Source: a virus. Taken from it: a stretch of DNA of 35,345 bases. Made by a program: the position numbers and the translations under genes. The notes beneath the pieces were generated by a model that was given only the letters and a program-made list of their open reading frames with translations, searched no databases and was not told the origin of the DNA. The DNA is taken from the IMG/VR virus record IMGVR_UViG_3300022752_000205, positions 1 to 35,345 of that record; one strand, given 5' to 3'. Of the stretch, positions 22,171-28,394 are shown one piece after another. Position 1 is the first letter of the stretch; every line of letters starts with the position of its first letter.

Positions 22171-23397
22171 ATGCAACTATTCCCCCATCAGCAAGAGGCC
22201 AAGCTCTTCTTGCTGTCTAGGCGCAGGGCCATACTGGCCGACCAGCCACGGGTTGGCAAGACGCTACCCACAGCAGCTGCTGCACTTGAAAACCTACCCG
22301 CACTGATCGTTTGCCCAGCCATTGCCAAAACAGTCTGGGAGTCTGCGTTTGCCAAGCTCGCGCCCAACGTCTCGGTCCATGTGGTCAATGGAAAACGAGG
22401 CGCTTCAGAGGTAAACAGTGCCGATGTGACCATCATTAACTATGATGTCTTGCAATATGCACAAACAGATTTGGACAGATATAGCACTCTAGTTTTGGAT
22501 GAGTGCCACAGGATTAAGAATCCAAAAGCCCAAAGGACTAAGGCGGCCATGCTGGCTATGAAGAAGATTTCCTTTGTTTATGCATTGTCTGGCACACCCA
22601 TCCCAAACAGGCCCATCGAGCTGTGGCCCATTCTGCACGGCCTTGGCATTTACAGAGGTGGCTGGTATGACTTTGCAGGCCGTTACGCAAAGATGTGGGT
22701 CGCGCCATGGGGCTTGGATACCAGTGGCGCATCCAACCTGGTCGAACTCAAAGACATGATGAAACCCCATGTCATGCGCAGAAAGAAAGAAGCCATTTTC
22801 AAAGACTACAAAGAGCCACAAGTCAGCCTGATCACCTTTGACCTACCCAATGACAAACGTGAGCAAAGTTTTGATGCCGATGCCTTGATGGCAAACCCCA
22901 ATGCCTTGCTGGCCTTTGAGGGTCTGGCCGAGATCATGCGGGAAGCCGGAATGCGCAAGGTCAAGGCCGCCAGTGAATTCATTGATGACTTGCTCCAAGC
23001 CAACGATCCAGTGGTGGTATTTGCGCACCACAAGGATGTAGTGGCCGAGCTGGAGAAACTGCTATTTGTTCACAAGCCAGTGACAGTGGTGGGTGATACC
23101 GCACGGGCCAAGCGCGACAAAGCTATTGCCGATTTCCAGTCTGGCCAGACCAAATGCATCATTGGCAACATTGCCGCCATGTCTGAAGGTGTGGACCTAT
23201 CCGCTGCCGACACGATTGTCTTTGTTGAATGCACTTGGTCCACATCAGCACTGGAGCAGGCCAGCAGCAGGGTCGAGAACATCAACAAGTCAGGCATTCC
23301 ACCCGTCATCTACATTCTGACCATCAAGGCCAGCTTGGACCATACAGTCTTGGCCAAGGTCTTAAAGAAGCTCAATATCGTCAACCAAATCATTTAA
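22171..23397 (+). CDS. SNF2/SF2-type DNA helicase
   Basis: This 408-aa ATP-dependent DNA translocase has the Walker A segment ILADQPRVGKTLPT (about 21-34), motif II LVLDECHRIKN (about 107-117, DECH in place of DEAH) and motif III ALSGTPIPN. In the C-terminal lobe are VVVFAHHKD, motif V MSEGVDLSAAD and a motif VI region EQASSRVENINKSG. Canonical SNF2 motif VI is QAxDRxxRxGQ; here the second Arg position holds Asn. Length is typical for phage members without extra domains. It is the first gene of the rightward replication operon, and likely remodels DNA for replication or recombination together with the next-door nuclease and SSB. Confidence 0.85.
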   Translation: MQLFPHQQEAKLFLLSRRRAILADQPRVGKTLPTAAAALENLPALIVCPAIAKTVWESAFAKLAPNVSVHVVNGKRGASEVNSADVTIINYDVLQYAQTDLDRYSTLVLDECHRIKNPKAQRTKAAMLAMKKISFVYALSGTPIPNRPIELWPILHGLGIYRGGWYDFAGRYAKMWVAPWGLDTSGASNLVELKDMMKPHVMRRKKEAIFKDYKEPQVSLITFDLPNDKREQSFDADALMANPNALLAFEGLAEIMREAGMRKVKAASEFIDDLLQANDPVVVFAHHKDVVAELEKLLFVHKPVTVVGDTARAKRDKAIADFQSGQTKCIIGNIAAMSEGVDLSAADTIVFVECTWSTSALEQASSRVENINKSGIPPVIYILTIKASLDHTVLAKVLKKLNIVNQII

Positions 23398-23411
23398 CCC
23401 TTGGAGAAACC

Positions 23412-24419
23412 ATGCAACATGAAACCCGTAAACACGCCCGACTCTCAGCATCCAGAACAGACCGCTTCATGTCTTGCCCTGGCTCATACAGGCTTGAATC
23501 CCTCATGCCTTATGAGCCAGCAGGCGAAGCCGCTGCCATTGGTACAGCGATCCATGAACTCTCTGAGATCATTCTGCGCAATGGTGAGATACCAACCGGA
23601 ACTGATCCGGACCATCTTTCAATGGCCCAAGGCTATGCCAACTTTGTCAACACTCTGGTCGAGAATCCGCGCAAAAAGCTGATCGAAGTCAATCTCGATG
23701 AGGGTCTGAAGTCTCTGCACCCAGCGCTTGGTGGGACTGCCGATGCAGTCCTGGTCGATGGCAACCATCTTCATGTCATTGATCTGAAGACTGGCCGAGT
23801 CGCTGTGGATGCCCAAGACAACAAGCAGCTCTTAACCTATGCCCTTGGAGCAATGCGCCAGCTCAAAGCGCCAAGCACCATCGAATGCACCATGCACATA
23901 TTCCAGCCGCGGGTTGGCCACAGCAAGTGGACAGTGTCGGGCAACCGCTTGAACTTGCATGGTGAGCGCTTGAAGTCGGCAGCCGAGCTGGCGCTCACAG
24001 GCGATGCACCCACAAACCCAAGCCCCGATGCCTGCCGATACTGCAAGGCCAAGACCATTTGCCCATCCATGCGCGAGAAGGTCCAAGAGGTCGCTAGAAG
24101 CGATTTCAAGCCTGACACCACTGTTACCCCAGAGATGCTAGATAACGCGGCTCTGGTGGCTGCATGGGCCGATGCAGTGCAGTCTGCTGCCAAAGATCAA
24201 TTGACCAATGGCCAAGCAATCACTGGCTGGACCATGCGCGCAGGCCGCAAGACTAAATTTTGGAAAGATGAGGCGCTGGTCATGGAAGCATTCAAAGACA
24301 ACTTGAAAGTGTGGGAGCTGAAGTCGCCCAGTGCTGTCTTGAAACTTGGTGTCGAAGTCAGCGAAGACCTAGTCGGTGAGAAGACTGCTGCGCCAAGTCT
24401 TGTCAAGGCCAAGGAATAG
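23412..24419 (+). CDS. RecB/Cas4-like PD-(D/E)XK nuclease with Fe-S cluster (DUF2800 type)
   Basis: In this 335-aa protein the PD-(D/E)XK core is clear: GTAIHEL (44-50), GGTADAVLVDGNHLHVIDLK with D111, D124 and K126, and the QxxxY motif QLLTY (139-143). Cys22 near the N-terminus and C208, C211 and C217 (CRYCKAKTIC) form the split four-Cys pattern of AddB/Cas4 nucleases that hold a 4Fe-4S cluster. It probably resects DNA ends. The start at ATG 23412 has GGAG 5 bases upstream. It is separated from the helicase stop by 14 bases. The C-terminal 100 residues (about 235-335) are a family-specific tail. Confidence 0.85.
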   Translation: MQHETRKHARLSASRTDRFMSCPGSYRLESLMPYEPAGEAAAIGTAIHELSEIILRNGEIPTGTDPDHLSMAQGYANFVNTLVENPRKKLIEVNLDEGLKSLHPALGGTADAVLVDGNHLHVIDLKTGRVAVDAQDNKQLLTYALGAMRQLKAPSTIECTMHIFQPRVGHSKWTVSGNRLNLHGERLKSAAELALTGDAPTNPSPDACRYCKAKTICPSMREKVQEVARSDFKPDTTVTPEMLDNAALVAAWADAVQSAAKDQLTNGQAITGWTMRAGRKTKFWKDEALVMEAFKDNLKVWELKSPSAVLKLGVEVSEDLVGEKTAAPSLVKAKE

Positions 24420-24444
24420 AATCACATCCCCTGCCAAAAGAAAA

Positions 24445-24474
24445 GACCTGACAGCGCGTTAACACTGCCAGGTC
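24445..24474 (+). other. Hairpin in the leader before the primase gene
   Basis: GACCTG (24445-24450) pairs with CAGGTC (24469-24474), with CAG/CTG adding three inner pairs. There is no T-tract, so it is not a standard terminator. It lies in the 82-base gap between nuclease and primase, just before a five-codon reading frame, and may protect RNA or control translation. Confidence 0.5.
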
Positions 24475-24487
24475 AAAGGTCAATCTC

Positions 24488-24505
24488 ATGGCAACTTACA
24501 AATGA
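24488..24505 (+). CDS. Five-codon leader ORF (MATYK) coupled to the primase start
   Basis: ATG 24488 with AAAGGT about 7 bases upstream encodes Met-Ala-Thr-Tyr-Lys. Its stop (24503-24505) overlaps the primase ATG at 24502 (ATGA), the same overlap used by true neighbouring genes here. Translating it would bring ribosomes to the primase start. It may be chance. Confidence 0.3.
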   Translation: MATYK

Positions 24506-26673
24506 AACCCCAACTTAAAGGAATTTCAGTGCCAACTATAACTGAAACACCCCTGCCAGACACATTCAGTCAGTCCCAGTCTGTCGCCTGCAAAATAGGT
24601 GCAGTCGCGCCTGATGCTGTCTTTTGTACGTTTGCCCTGCAAGGCAACAAAAAGATTCCTTACAAGCGAAGCGGCCAAGGCGTGGCACGGGATACAGACC
24701 CGTCAGACCTTTACAACTCAGAAGATATCTGGGCCATGGAGTCATGCCCTCATGGCCAATATCTTGGCTTGGTCCAGCAGCGCCCCATCATCAGCGCATC
24801 AGGCAACTTTCTGGTTTGCCTCGATGTGGACATGAAACACGCATCAGGCCCGACCAATGTGGCCATTCAGCGCATGGCCAAGTATGTCAAGCAGCACAAG
24901 ATGCTGACCGAGGTTTCTGTCTCAGGCCGTGGCCGTCATGTCTTCTTATGGGTCTCACCACCCAAAGAATCTGACCAAGTCTTACCCAAATACAAACTGG
25001 GCGGTGGCCAAGAGCTAGAAGTCTTTGGCCTGCCAAACAGTGCGGGCAAGTCAGTGCTACTTTCTGGCAATTCGGTGGTCGGTGAATTCCAAGAGGCCGT
25101 GGATTTGCATGAACTTTTAATGGACTGGGGCATCATCGAGCAGCACCAGCTGCAAGAGCCAAAGCCTGCACCACCGAGCCAATCATTTGACTTCACCCAA
25201 TTAGGTTCAAGACTGGATGACAGCGATCTTGATCGTGCCATCAAGGCTTTGCACCATATCAGCCCAGACTGCGACTATGACCAGTGGATTGAACTTGGCC
25301 AAGCGCTGCACACTGAATTTGGCGAGGCTGGTCTCGGCCCATGGATGACATGGTCCATGGCAGGCAACAAGTTTGCAGGCACAAAAGACATTGAAGTCCA
25401 CTGGAAGAGCTTTCACCAAGGCAAAGGTGTGGGGCTTGGAACTTTGTACAAACACGCCAAAGACGCTGGCTGGGAAGCCCCAACCAAGCAGTCCGAGCGC
25501 AAGTCAGCGGTGGAAGACTTTGCAGCAGTGATTGGCCAAGCTGAAGCGCAAATTGAAGCGCAAAAAGAGACCAAAGGCTGGCCAGAGCGAACACTGACCA
25601 TTGGCCAGATCAAGCCCATTCGCTACATGGTCAAAGGCTTTTGGGCGCACAGTTTCATGGTGCTGGCTGGTCAGCCTGGCATTGGCAAGACCACAGCAGT
25701 GATCAGTCTGTGCATGGTCATGGCAGGCTTACAGGCCAAAGACTGTGAACTCACGGCCACCAAGAAACGCAAAACAATCATAGTGACTGAAGACTCGGAC
25801 CAAGTCGAGAGAACTCTTACAGGCTATGCCAGGCATTACGGGATCAGTGCGGCTTCATTATCAGACTGGTTTGTCATCATCGATGCCAAAAGGTCCAATG
25901 TGAAAGATTTACTCATGCTTGCACATAATGTAATAAATCACACGATTGATAATGTACGGCCATTATTAGTTTTGGACACGGCTAATGCCACAATGGATAT
26001 TGATAATGAGAATGACAACTCAGAAGTTGGTGCATATATTGCCGCACTAAAGCAGACCATTTATATCCAACTGGACACGCCAGTCTGCATCATTACCCAC
26101 ACAAACAAGACCATCAGCAAGTCAGACTCAGATGCCACAGCCCGTGGTGCATCAGCATTCACAGGCGATGCAACCCTGACCGGAGTGCTGTTTGAAGATG
26201 AGACCAAGACCCGCTATATGCGCCTGGTCAAGACCCGTTATCAGCCCAACTTCAGAGAAATCAAATTCAATAGCGATGTCTTTGCCGACACTGTGCTGGA
26301 TGAAGACGGGGATGTCCAAGAGCAAATGGTGCTGCTGGTCGTGCCAGCCATGTCATCGGAAGAAGACCGAAGGCAAGCAGCCAACGACCGGCAGAACGAT
26401 AAGAAGCAGCAGCAAGTCCAAGATGCGTGTGATGCTGCCTGCAACTTTGTCCAATCCATCATCAATGCCAAAGGCGCGGTGATCATGCGCAGAGGGTCTG
26501 GCAGGCCATCAGTGCCAAAAGAACTCATAACAATGCACCAGCTGGAGTGGGCTGACATCTATCAGGCCGTGCCAATGGCCGACCAAAGCTACGCAAGAAA
26601 GGCCGTCAGCGCGGCCATATTTCAGCGCTTTGCAATGGACCAAGCAAGCAGCGGATGGGTTCAAATAAAGTAA
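24502..26673 (+). CDS. Primase-polymerase / replicative helicase fusion
   Basis: This 723-aa protein has three parts. About 40-205 is an archaeo-eukaryotic-type prim-pol: FLVCLDVDMK (D108, D110), the SGRGRHVFLW nucleotide motif (141-150) and GGGQELEVFG. About 240-325 is a PriCT-2-like domain (ISPDCDYDQWIELGQALH... WKSFHQGKGVGLGTLYKHAKDAGW). About 365-620 is a RecA-fold helicase with Walker A VLAGQPGIGKTT (387-398) and Walker B RPLLVLDTANAT (D492), as in RepA/AAA_25 helicases. It would prime and unwind at the phage origin. An alternative start is GTG 24529, which has the better Shine-Dalgarno (AAAGGA, 6 bases). The repeat cluster and DnaA boxes follow at once. Confidence 0.85.
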   Translation: MKPQLKGISVPTITETPLPDTFSQSQSVACKIGAVAPDAVFCTFALQGNKKIPYKRSGQGVARDTDPSDLYNSEDIWAMESCPHGQYLGLVQQRPIISASGNFLVCLDVDMKHASGPTNVAIQRMAKYVKQHKMLTEVSVSGRGRHVFLWVSPPKESDQVLPKYKLGGGQELEVFGLPNSAGKSVLLSGNSVVGEFQEAVDLHELLMDWGIIEQHQLQEPKPAPPSQSFDFTQLGSRLDDSDLDRAIKALHHISPDCDYDQWIELGQALHTEFGEAGLGPWMTWSMAGNKFAGTKDIEVHWKSFHQGKGVGLGTLYKHAKDAGWEAPTKQSERKSAVEDFAAVIGQAEAQIEAQKETKGWPERTLTIGQIKPIRYMVKGFWAHSFMVLAGQPGIGKTTAVISLCMVMAGLQAKDCELTATKKRKTIIVTEDSDQVERTLTGYARHYGISAASLSDWFVIIDAKRSNVKDLLMLAHNVINHTIDNVRPLLVLDTANATMDIDNENDNSEVGAYIAALKQTIYIQLDTPVCIITHTNKTISKSDSDATARGASAFTGDATLTGVLFEDETKTRYMRLVKTRYQPNFREIKFNSDVFADTVLDEDGDVQEQMVLLVVPAMSSEEDRRQAANDRQNDKKQQQVQDACDAACNFVQSIINAKGAVIMRRGSGRPSVPKELITMHQLEWADIYQAVPMADQSYARKAVSAAIFQRFAMDQASSGWVQIK

Positions 26674-26854
26674 ACCGGTAAACCGGTAGTAAACCGGTAG
26701 TAAAGCGGTATACCGGTTTAGATAATGGCAGGTCTGTTGGTATAAGTGGGGGTCGTAGACCCACTTATCCACAGGCCAATCTGGTCAGTTTTGGGATAGT
26801 GAAAAGTAAACAGGTAAACCGGTAGATTTCCTTTGTCCATACCGGTTTACTTTT
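26671..26854. repeat. ACCGGT repeat (iteron-like) cluster after the primase gene
   Basis: Units of the form TAAACCGGTAG occur with ACCGGT at 26674, 26682, 26693, (AGCGGT variant) 26704, 26712, 26818 and 26841. Spacings in the first block are 8 or 11 bases. The 26712 unit is inverted. The last two form a perfect 11-bp inverted repeat, GTAAACCGGTA (26814-26824) with TACCGGTTTAC (26840-26850), and a flanking AAAAGTAAAC (26802-26811) can also pair with GTTTACTTTT (26845-26854). Another TAAAGCGGTAG lies at 26965-26975 in the next gene. Such repeats beside a primase-helicase gene suggest initiator binding sites. Confidence 0.75.
26742..26768. repeat. Perfect inverted repeat overlapping a DnaA box
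   Basis: ATAAGTGGG (26742-26750) and CCCACTTAT (26760-26768) form a 9-bp stem with a 9-base loop and no T-tract. The right arm overlaps the DnaA box TTATCCACA (26765-26773). An origin or regulatory structure fits better than a terminator. Confidence 0.6.
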
Positions 26855-26916
26855 GACCCTTTCGGGAGGTTTTGCATGGGACAAGAAGTTAGACAGTTAT
26901 CCACAGGTTATCCACA
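26765..26916 (+). promoter_or_regulatory. Three consensus DnaA boxes
   Basis: Perfect TTATCCACA copies occur at 26765-26773, 26897-26905 and 26908-26916. The last two are in tandem, 11 bases apart, inside the first codons of the gene starting at 26876. With the iteron-like repeats they mark 26671-26916 as a possible replication origin or DnaA-responsive control region. Confidence 0.65.
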
Positions 26917-27220
26917 ATCTGACAAATGGGTTGAAGATGAGCGCGTTTTCTGCCACCAGTGCAGTAAAGCGGTAGAAGTGGACATGAAGCAGTCCATGCC
27001 AGCCGAGCAGATGGAAAGGCACAGAAAGGTCAACTCAAAGCCATTGCAGTGGATGTTTGACGAAGCAAAGATTCGGAATGGATGGGCAACCATCACATGG
27101 TCCGAACATCAATGCAGCCAAACCGGACTGGCTGCATTCCCGACCGATGTCAAACACCGATGCCACTTGTTTCAAGCCAAAGCCACGGCAGTAGAATCCG
27201 AGTCATGGTGGTTGACATAA
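26876..27220 (+). CDS. Small Cys/His-containing protein, function unknown
   Basis: This 114-aa protein contains a CHQC pair (about 26-29) and later HQC and RCH, so it may bind zinc. The C-terminal half is mixed alpha/beta with Trp. The start has GGGAGG 7 bases upstream. The first codons contain two DnaA boxes, so the N-terminal residues may reflect DNA function more than protein function. It overlaps the VRR-NUC gene by 16 bases. Confidence 0.55.
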   Translation: MGQEVRQLSTGYPQSDKWVEDERVFCHQCSKAVEVDMKQSMPAEQMERHRKVNSKPLQWMFDEAKIRNGWATITWSEHQCSQTGLAAFPTDVKHRCHLFQAKATAVESESWWLT

Positions 27221-27603
27221 AGCGCAAGCGCAAAAGCATTGAACACATTGACCAGGTCAAGGTGGTGCAACACATTCGTGCGTTTTATCCGGACTGCATC
27301 ATTGCAGCAATACCCAATGGAGGCGATAGAAGCGCTTCAGAGCGCGTCAGATTGCATTCTGAAGGGGTTTTAGCAGGGATGCCTGACCTTTGCGTCTTAG
27401 AGCCTAAAAATGGGTTTCATGGGCTTTTCATTGAGATGAAGACCAAGGCCGGAGTGGTGTCAAGCAAACAAAGCGCTGTGGGTTTGCAGTTAAACGCAAA
27501 AGGATATCTGTGCCTGGTCTCAAGATCAGCGCCAGATGCAATCAAAATCATTGAAGGGTATTTGAATGGCCAAGCCAAAAAAGAGTGCAGCAACATTGAG
27601 TGA
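27205..27603 (+). CDS. VRR-NUC domain nuclease
   Basis: In this 132-aa protein the VRR-NUC motifs are AAIPNGGDRSASERVRLHSEG (N38 to G54), GMPDLCVLEPKNGFHGLFIEMK (D61, E77, K79) and SSKQSAV (Q89). Together they form the PD-(D/E)XK active site of a small Holliday-junction or flap type nuclease. The start at ATG 27205 is chosen because earlier in-frame residues lie within the previous gene. It is followed by terS with a 38-base overlap, placing it between replication and packaging, where junction resolution would be needed. Confidence 0.85.
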   Translation: MVVDIKRKRKSIEHIDQVKVVQHIRAFYPDCIIAAIPNGGDRSASERVRLHSEGVLAGMPDLCVLEPKNGFHGLFIEMKTKAGVVSSKQSAVGLQLNAKGYLCLVSRSAPDAIKIIEGYLNGQAKKECSNIE

Positions 27604-28084
27604 GCTTGCTGACAACATTGTCGAGCGTCAGCTCACATTGCGTGACCAGGCTGCAATCGAGCGCAAAGAAATGAGCAGCATCAATAAGAAAATTCATGCC
27701 TTTGGTGGTGAAGCCATGGTCTTTGACCACATCTCACAGGGGAAGACCATCGATTCAGTGATTAAGTCTTTGGAGATAAGCATTGGCGGTTTCTACAAAT
27801 GGGTCGAAAGAGATGCCAAGCGGGGAGAACTCCTCGCACGCGCACGCACGCGAGGTGGGAGAAGTTTAGCAGAGCAGACGCTGGAAATTGCAGACTCTGC
27901 CACGCCTCAAGAAGCACAAGTGGCCAAGCTGAGAGTGGACACAAGGCGCTGGCTGGCCTCTAAGCAAGCGCCAGACGAGTATGGTGACAAGCAGCAGCCA
28001 CTGGTCAACATCGACCTTGGAAGCATGGCCCTTGATGCATTGCGCAAGCGCAGCATGACAATTGAAGATATGAATACCAAATGA
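27566..28084 (+). CDS. terS: Terminase small subunit
   Basis: This 172-aa protein recognises phage DNA for packaging. It has an N-terminal basic segment, and a helix-turn-helix region at about 50-90 (VFDHISQGKTIDSVIKSLEI, GGFYKWVERD). A helix with LLARARTRGGRSLAEQTLEIAD follows, then the typical motif KLRVDTRRWLASKQAPDEYGD near the C-terminus, which many small terminases share. It is 827 bases ahead of terL; the interval holds an origin-like noncoding segment and three tiny genes, an unusual separation. Confidence 0.8.
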   Translation: MAKPKKSAATLSELADNIVERQLTLRDQAAIERKEMSSINKKIHAFGGEAMVFDHISQGKTIDSVIKSLEISIGGFYKWVERDAKRGELLARARTRGGRSLAEQTLEIADSATPQEAQVAKLRVDTRRWLASKQAPDEYGDKQQPLVNIDLGSMALDALRKRSMTIEDMNTK

Positions 28085-28394
28085 TTCAGTCACTTTATAC
28101 AACGACCATTATGTTAAGTGGATAAGTCGTTATCCACAGAATTAAGTGCATTAAAGTATTACAAGCCTAGTTATGCACAGGAATCTGTGGATAAAGTTGG
28201 CCAAAATCTGGGGACAAGTCGGTGGTGGCCAGCTGGCGGTCGGTGGCCGAGACCCCCCCCGTGGCCGCTTTGGCGGGGGCGACTGTGGCGGCACTAAACA
28301 CCTACAAAAAAAATTTTTAAAAAAATAAAAAATAATTTAACAAACAAATCAAATTGTGCAAAAATGTCAACTCCACAAACAACGGAGTAAACGA
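28085..28394. other. 310-base intergenic segment, candidate replication origin
   Basis: No gene is seen here. DnaA boxes: AGTGGATAA (28117-28125, minus strand, one mismatch), TTATCCACA (28130-28138), TTATGCACA (28171-28179) and TGTGGATAA (28186-28194, minus strand). The first two form a perfect 8-bp inverted repeat around GTCG. A GC-rich block (28203-28294) includes a C8 run at 28253-28260 that can pair with GGGGG about 20 bases later. An A/T tract follows (28306-28352), almost pure A/T, like a duplex-unwinding element. This box cluster plus A/T tract is the layout of DnaA-dependent origins. It could also contain a packaging (pac/cos) site, being next to terS. Confidence 0.6.

What the first reader, a model, noticed from the sequence alone, without database searches (positions are those of the whole stretch)
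26671..26975. ACCGGT iteron-like cluster with DnaA boxes behind the primase-helicase gene
Six ACCGGT palindromes plus AGCGGT variants, mostly inside TAAACCGGTAG units, start within the primase stop codon. They include an inverted pair forming an 11-bp stem, and share the region with a 9-bp inverted repeat and three perfect TTATCCACA boxes. Iterons beside an initiator-like gene are typical of plasmid and phage origins, so this is a second origin candidate or an autoregulatory site for the primase-helicase.
Basis: partly seen in the sequence, partly recalled or inferred. Interest (0 to 1): 0.65.

Follow-up and report, generated by a model that had tools for sequence, protein, structure and literature searches.

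The report
Phage replication origin with swappable address
Just behind its primase-helicase gene this freshwater phage carries nine copies of a short DNA word that is very probably the address where that protein docks to start copying the genome; in over a hundred relatives the word and the protein's tail change together as an exchangeable pair, so the matching between them can be tested directly.

Summary
All nine TAAANNGGTA sites of the 35-kb window lie in 26671-26974 (about 1 expected in the whole window), with a hairpin and three TTATCCACA boxes. Relatives show the same layout: sites spaced 8, 11, 11, then 10 inverted; hairpin/DnaA box; a second iteron cluster; DnaA boxes; and usually one site inside the next gene. 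The layout holds while the word changes: TAAAsCGGTA (A), TAATsCGGTA (C), TAATrCGGAA (B), and an unrelated TCGrrGATACC in primases about 50% identical. The word follows one part of the primase-helicase, its C-terminal ~80 residues: iteron type needs 2 changes (the minimum) on the C-terminal tree, 6 on the helicase tree and 21 on the primase-domain tree (as many as shuffled labels). The linked block is 26271-26910, the C-terminal domain plus iterons. In all 108 distinct alleles residue 666 (GxGRP motif) matches iteron base 4 (S with A, P with T). Best reading: this is the iteron half of the phage's replication origin, bound by the primase-helicase's C-terminal DNA-binding domain. Autoregulation of the primase is not supported. 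SaPI/PICI, P4 and PLE replicons are close precedents. Binding and origin activity are inferred, not shown.

The parts
24502..26673 (+). 723-aa primase-helicase: AEP-type primase domain (LDVD ... GRGRH ... ELEVF motifs), PriCT-2, RecA-fold helicase domain, C-terminal domain
   Evidence: Pfam PriCT_2 E 1.2e-17 and AAA_25 E 8e-18; PHROGs primase / primase-helicase; AEP motifs read from the alignment
26419..26670 (+). C-terminal domain (residues about 640-723), proposed iteron-binding domain; winged-helix-like order of elements
   Evidence: model pLDDT 86.9, pTM 0.77; iteron type needs only 2 changes on its tree
26497..26499 (+). codon of Ser666 in the GxGRP motif, matched to iteron base 4 (S with A, P with T)
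   Evidence: 108 of 108 distinct alleles agree; 157 of 157 rows before removing duplicates
26671..26680 (+). iteron 1 TAAACCGGTA (overlaps the primase stop codon)
26679..26688 (+). iteron 2 TAAACCGGTA
26690..26699 (+). iteron 3 TAAACCGGTA
26701..26710 (+). iteron 4 TAAAGCGGTA
26711..26720 (-). iteron 5 TAAACCGGTA, inverted
26742..26768 (.). hairpin, 9-bp stem ATAAGTGGG/CCCACTTAT; its 3' arm runs into DnaA box 1
   Evidence: 97% of cells paired, 4 of 9 pairs with double changes, 0 of 500 shuffles as high; fold z -4.1
26765..26773 (+). DnaA box TTATCCACA
   Evidence: present in 104 of 106 relatives
26807..26816 (+). iteron 6 TAAACAGGTA
26815..26824 (+). iteron 7 TAAACCGGTA
26840..26849 (-). iteron 8 TAAACCGGTA, inverted
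26897..26905 (+). DnaA box TTATCCACA (in the next gene)
   Evidence: both boxes of this pair kept in 102 of 106 relatives
26908..26916 (+). DnaA box TTATCCACA, 11 bp after the previous one
26965..26974 (+). iteron 9 TAAAGCGGTA inside the coding sequence of the next gene
   Evidence: where a site is present it carries the array's word in 30/30 A, 43/43 B and 14/17 C-like alleles; absent in some relatives
26876..27220 (+). next gene, 114 aa, weak zinc-ribbon match; not the likely iteron binder
   Evidence: iteron type needs 6 changes on its tree against 2 for the primase C-terminus on the same rows
28130..28194 (.). second DnaA-box group (28130 +, 28171 + TTATGCACA, 28186 -)
   Evidence: kept at the same offset in nearly all relatives that reach it
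28304..28356 (.). AT-rich stretch, candidate unwinding element
   Evidence: AT-rich minimum at the same offset in all relatives that reach it

Best explanation
26671-26975 is the initiator-binding half of the phage's replication origin. The primase-helicase encoded just upstream binds the nine iterons with its C-terminal ~80-residue domain (winged-helix-like helix 696-710 plus a GxGRP arm at 665-669). Bound at two clusters that face each other across a hairpin and a DnaA box, it would assemble and load its own RecA-type helicase, helped by host DnaA at the boxes here and at the DnaA/AT-rich module 1.2 kb downstream; it would then prime with its AEP domain and hand over to the host polymerase. 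Shown here: iteron array, fixed geometry, hairpin by compensatory changes, conserved DnaA boxes, and inheritance of iteron word and C-terminal domain as one exchangeable cassette. Inferred: binding, helicase loading, DnaA help, origin firing.
For: Layout (offsets +1,+9,+20,+31,-41 / box / +137,+145,-170 / boxes / +295) kept in relatives with words A, B and C, and the 8-11-11-10-inverted spacing kept in L233 and in MW202879, which has an unrelated word. Changes of iteron type on trees: C-terminal 2, linker 2, helicase 6, primase and PriCT 21; shuffled labels mean about 21.5. Sliding windows: minimum only at 26271-26910. Type C iterons occur with both helicase alleles but always with the type C C-terminus. 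Residue 666 against base 4: 108/108. Recognition-helix start SY or GH against GY goes with GGTA against GGAA without exception. Scanning IMG/VR with the array alone gave 97 arrays with enough upstream sequence, each directly behind a gene of this primase family. Word absent elsewhere in near-complete genomes apart from two isolated chance matches with a different core. Hairpin covariation. DnaA boxes. No DNA polymerase recognised among the proteins searched.
Against: No binding or replication data. The C-terminal domain is adjacent to the iterons, so part of the correlation is linkage. On the C-terminal tree itself base 4 changes only twice, so few independent events support the residue-to-base match. 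Fold searches gave no significant winged-helix hit. No strongly AT-rich element lies inside the iteron region itself. L024 keeps one mismatched site and L048 a B-type coding site. GC skew (circular minimum 26292) is only weak support.
Confidence: 0.8

Rival explanations
1. The repeats are an operator: a transcription regulator (the primase-helicase itself or another phage protein) binds them to control the genes downstream (ORF 26876, VRR-NUC, terminase).
For: The arrays fill the gap upstream of the next gene's start and overlap the primase stop; one site lies inside the next gene.
Against: No sigma-70-like promoter was found between the arrays and the gene start; nine sites in two mirrored clusters around a conserved hairpin and DnaA boxes is more than an operator needs; no copies at other promoters; the word follows the primase-helicase C-terminus.
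Confidence: 0.1
2. The binder is the product of the next gene (114 aa, zinc-ribbon-like), with the C-terminal domain of the primase only hitch-hiking by linkage.
For: The gene is adjacent and carries one iteron; it is partly linked to the type (6 changes against about 21 in shuffles).
Against: C-terminal domain gives 2 changes on the same rows; L024 and L048 combine C iterons with A- or B-like parts of this gene; the next windows downstream already lose the signal (7, then 17 changes).
Confidence: 0.05
3. The real origin is the DnaA-box/AT-rich region 28130-28356, opened by host DnaA; the iterons only recruit the primase-helicase or serve copy control.
For: That region has DnaA boxes in both orientations and the most AT-rich DNA nearby, conserved in relatives.
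Against: It has no iterons, so does not explain why the primase-helicase has its own address; three DnaA boxes also sit among the iterons. The two may be parts of one origin.
Confidence: 0.15
4. Chance or composition artefact.
For: ACCGGT alone is only mildly over-represented in the window (7 against 3.2).
Against: The 10-mer occurs 9 times, all within 304 bp, and the geometry is conserved over a hundred alleles and several words.
Confidence: 0.005

Closest known systems
SaPI Rep/ori and PICI pri-rep/ori (PMC7581432, PMC6092414)
   Same: Initiator helicase, fused to or paired with an AEP primase, whose C-terminal domain binds short iterons directly downstream of its own gene; two iteron sets face each other; initiator exists as allelic variants.
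   Different: SaPI helicases are of the DUF927 or D5 kinds, here RecA-type (AAA_25/RepA/DnaB-like); PICI iterons flank an AT-rich stretch, here they flank a hairpin with a DnaA box; here a free phage, not a satellite.
Satellite phage P4 alpha protein with its origin (as described in PMC4234260)
   Same: One protein with primase, helicase and a winged-helix domain that binds repeats at the origin.
   Different: P4 alpha has a Toprim (bacterial-type) primase; DnaA boxes are not part of that description.
pRN1 ORF904 replicon (PMC4234260)
   Same: AEP primase, helicase and C-terminal winged helix; origin lies directly 3' of the gene and contains a stem-loop kept by structure rather than sequence.
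   Different: pRN1 has no iterons; its helicase is SF3; archaeal plasmid.
V. cholerae PLE RepA/ori modules (PMC8263062)
   Same: DNA-binding domain of the initiator covaries with the origin and is swapped as a module; only cognate pairs replicate (shown experimentally there).
   Different: PLE uses an N-terminal RepA_N domain, about 30-bp semi-palindromic iterons, no primase-helicase; there an origin-directed nuclease is a likely driver, here no driver is known.
PrimQH-type AEP proteins (PMC5862659)
   Different: No origin was identified for them in the passages read; membership of the window's AEP in that family was not tested.

Membership tests
Iteron-type replication origin | Several short direct repeats next to the initiator gene | tested here: met
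   9 sites in 26671-26974, first one on the stop codon of the primase-helicase gene
Iteron-type replication origin | Repeats are bound by the adjacent initiator | not testable with these tools
   Only covariation: 2 changes on the C-terminal tree, residue 666/base 4 concordance 108/108
Iteron-type replication origin | DnaA boxes and an AT-rich unwinding element | tested here: met
   3 DnaA boxes among the iterons; DnaA/AT-rich module 1.2 kb downstream, both conserved. The AT-rich part is not inside the iteron region.
Iteron-type replication origin | Supports autonomous replication | not testable with these tools
   needs an experiment
SaPI/PICI-type initiator with downstream origin | C-terminal domain of the initiator helicase recognises iterons directly downstream of its gene | tested here: inconclusive
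   Position met; recognition inferred from covariation
SaPI/PICI-type initiator with downstream origin | DUF927 or D5/Primase_Cterm helicase | tested here: not met
   Pfam gives AAA_25 and a weak DnaB_C match
P4 alpha family | Toprim/DnaG-type primase domain | tested here: not met
   PriCT_2 and AEP motifs LDVD/GRGRH/ELEVF
C-terminal winged-helix domain | Winged-helix fold | tested here: inconclusive
   Confident model with fitting order of elements, but no significant fold match; top VIA row is a cullin C-terminal domain at Z 4.0, rmsd 3.7, 83 aligned
AEP primase with PriCT-2 and RepA/DnaB-like helicase | Domain order AEP - PriCT-2 - RecA-fold ATPase - C-terminal domain | tested here: met
   PriCT_2 247-319, AAA_25 368-537, AEP motifs at 107-175, C-terminal domain model

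The most novel reading that the evidence does not exclude
The phages carry a readable two-point code between initiator and origin: residue 666 of a GxGRP arm reads base 4 of the iteron (S with A, P with T) and the start of helix 696-710 reads base 9 (SY with T, GY with A). C-terminal domain plus iterons circulate in the population as a specificity cassette, free of the rest of the initiator, possibly kept diverse by selection against cross-recognition by co-infecting relatives or parasites.
Probability: 0.35. Interest if true: 0.7.

Novelty: new variant of a known kind. Interest (0 to 1): 0.58.

Why it matters
How an initiator and its origin can change address together without a dead intermediate is an old question. 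Here nature supplies an allelic series: several words on one fixed scaffold, recombinants that separate helicase and primase alleles from the C-terminal domain, an intermediate word (C) between A and B, and a one-residue/one-base prediction. It also gives a likely replication origin for a common but uncultured group of freshwater phages, and array patterns that find more members in metagenomes.

Tried and rejected
ACCGGT palindrome as the functional unit: rejected, centre varies and many relatives lack it. Hairpin as transcription terminator: no T-run and not in the terminator list. Search for satellites carrying the array without the primase: none; only three of 100 arrays lacked the gene, all with the array near a contig or stretch end. 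Sequence search of the C-terminal domain in Pfam and PDB: only weak, meaningless matches. Foldseek/VIA for the C-terminal model: nothing significant; glutaredoxin-like rows at Z about 3 and a cullin C-terminal region at Z 4.0. Full-length model poor (pLDDT 63.6) apart from the C-terminus. GC3 skew by gene: no clear switch, so only weak support from skew. D-type arrays are too mixed within one array for the same residue-to-base analysis. Host: the single hit in 84,980 genomes is one contig in a metagenome-assembled genome binned as Acidimicrobium, not trusted as a host link.

Full report
Observation. The better description of the unit is the 10-mer TAAANNGGTA, nine copies, seven direct and two inverted, all at 26671-26974 and nowhere else in 35,345 bases; about 1.1 would be expected in the whole window at random. 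DnaA boxes: five perfect TTATCCACA in the window, all between 26765 and 28194, against 0.26 expected.

Neighbours. Upstream is a 723-aa protein with AEP primase motifs, a PriCT-2 domain and a RecA-type helicase domain. Downstream are a 114-aa ORF with a weak zinc-ribbon match, a VRR-NUC protein and the terminase small subunit; elsewhere the window has a Gp2.5-like ssDNA-binding protein, an exonuclease, a SNF2-type helicase, an SU10-type portal and head/tail genes. No DNA polymerase was recognised among the proteins searched.

Conservation of layout. In IMG/VR relatives the sites sit at offsets +1, +9, +20, +31, -41, then DnaA box +95, sites +137, +145, -170, DnaA boxes +227 and +238, and a coding site at +295. 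Within A the two central bases vary (CC, GC, CA). Other relatives have TAATGCGGTA (C) or CTAATrCGGAA (B) in the same frame. More distant ones keep the spacing: L233 with TAATACGGTA/TAATCCGGTT, and MW202879 and its relatives with TCGrrGATACC-like words at 8, 11, 11, 10-inverted, DnaA boxes and a coding copy. The word turned over while the scaffold stayed.

Which protein part follows the word. Identity by segment shows that the primase domain is shared freely among types, the helicase has two alleles, and the last ~80 residues have one allele group per iteron type; C iterons occur with both helicase alleles. On trees of 78 loci the type needs 21 changes for the primase and PriCT parts, 6 for the helicase, 2 for the linker and 2 for the C-terminal domain, 2 being the minimum for three types; label shuffles need about 21.5. 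DNA windows of 240 bp give 18-23 changes in the primase half, 6-8 in the helicase half, 2 across 26271-26910, 7 at the next gene's start and 13-18 after that. So C-terminal domain and iterons travel as a cassette in a population whose flanks recombine freely. Part of this is physical linkage; what linkage does not explain is that nine scattered sites on both strands, one in a coding sequence, all take the same word. The coding site is the sharpest case: AGTAAaGCGGTA against AGTAAtGCGGTA in otherwise equal context; where present it fits the array in 30/30 A, 43/43 B and 14/17 C-like alleles, though several A relatives lack it.

Residue to base. Scanning IMG/VR for the arrays alone brought in primases down to about 52-60% identity; all 97 arrays with enough upstream sequence follow a gene of this family. 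Over 108 distinct alleles the x of GxGRP (residue 666) is S when iteron base 4 is A (45) and P when it is T (63); L233 has A with T. L288, whose primase is only about 61% identical to the window's, has S and an A array. The start of the predicted recognition helix (696-710) is SY or GH with GGTA words and GY with GGAA words, without exception. Caution: on the C-terminal tree base 4 changes only twice, so independent events are few; the 8 of 8 independent pairs on the primase-domain tree (p 0.008) reflect cassette exchange. Many of the 157 rows are the same contig fetched twice, hence the 108 distinct alleles.

Structure. The C-terminal domain alone is modelled with pLDDT 86.9 and pTM 0.77: long helix, strand, strand, helix, helix 79-93 (696-710), strand, an order that fits a winged helix. 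Searches against solved structures gave nothing significant, so the fold name stays inference. The GRP core recalls AT-hook motifs, which fits TAA-starting words and its absence in the D group; that is my own reading, not a test.

Hairpin. Between the two clusters lies ATAAGTGGG...CCCACTTAT, whose 3' arm runs into a DnaA box. Across 16 distinct versions 97% of cells pair, four of nine pairs have changes on both sides, and no shuffle does as well. The D group has different but again self-complementary arms at the same place. No terminator-like T-run or promoter was found there. It may be a priming or helicase entry structure, as ssi sites in RSF1010 or the pRN1 stem-loop (PMC4234260); inference.

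Mechanism. Most likely the primase-helicase binds its iterons through the C-terminal domain, loads itself at the mirrored clusters with DnaA help, opens DNA at the hairpin or at the conserved AT-rich stretch 1.2 kb downstream, primes, and passes to the host polymerase. GC skew has its circular minimum at 26292, weak support. Binding, loading and firing are not shown.

Known systems. [quoted passage not shown] Gram-negative PICIs have two iteron sets flanking an AT-rich region and several Pri-Rep alleles (PMC6092414); P4 alpha and pRN1 ORF904 have winged-helix DNA-binding domains (PMC4234260); PLE RepA DNA-binding domains covary and swap with their origins, and only cognate pairs replicate (PMC8263062); AEP-PriCT-RepA/DnaB-winged-helix proteins were predicted to recognise origins (PMC5862659). 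The window's system works like these, is not a member of the SaPI or P4 families by helicase and primase type, and adds a large natural allelic series with a defined specificity cassette. I found no earlier description of it in the library searched; that library lacks most subscription journals.

Noticed in passing
28130-28356: Second DnaA-box group (two on +, one on -, forming a 22-nt inverted repeat) followed by a G/C-rich stretch and then a 50-bp AT-rich run; offset kept in nearly all relatives that reach it.
   Followed up: partly
L158-L192, downstream of the primase (e.g. L172, L180, L178): D-group arrays mix several words in one array (GATACC, GGGACC, GCGACC, GGTGGYC) and some carry a GGGAC form in the coding site; may be origins caught in the middle of changing their word.
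   Followed up: partly
L020, L022, L030, L035, L036, L040, L041, L043-L046 (next gene, about +270 to +310): Relatives that lack the coding iteron carry a different local DNA and protein segment there, so the ninth site is dispensable.
   Followed up: partly
23271-25500 and 27071-28310 (alignment of relatives on window coordinates): Recombination among these freshwater phages is so strong that iteron type is almost fully shuffled relative to sequence about a kilobase away.
   Followed up: partly
26897-26916: Two DnaA boxes 11 bp apart are written into the first codons of the next gene (Q-L-S-T-G-Y-P-Q) and kept in 102 of 106 relatives, a coding constraint imposed by DNA sites.
   Followed up: no
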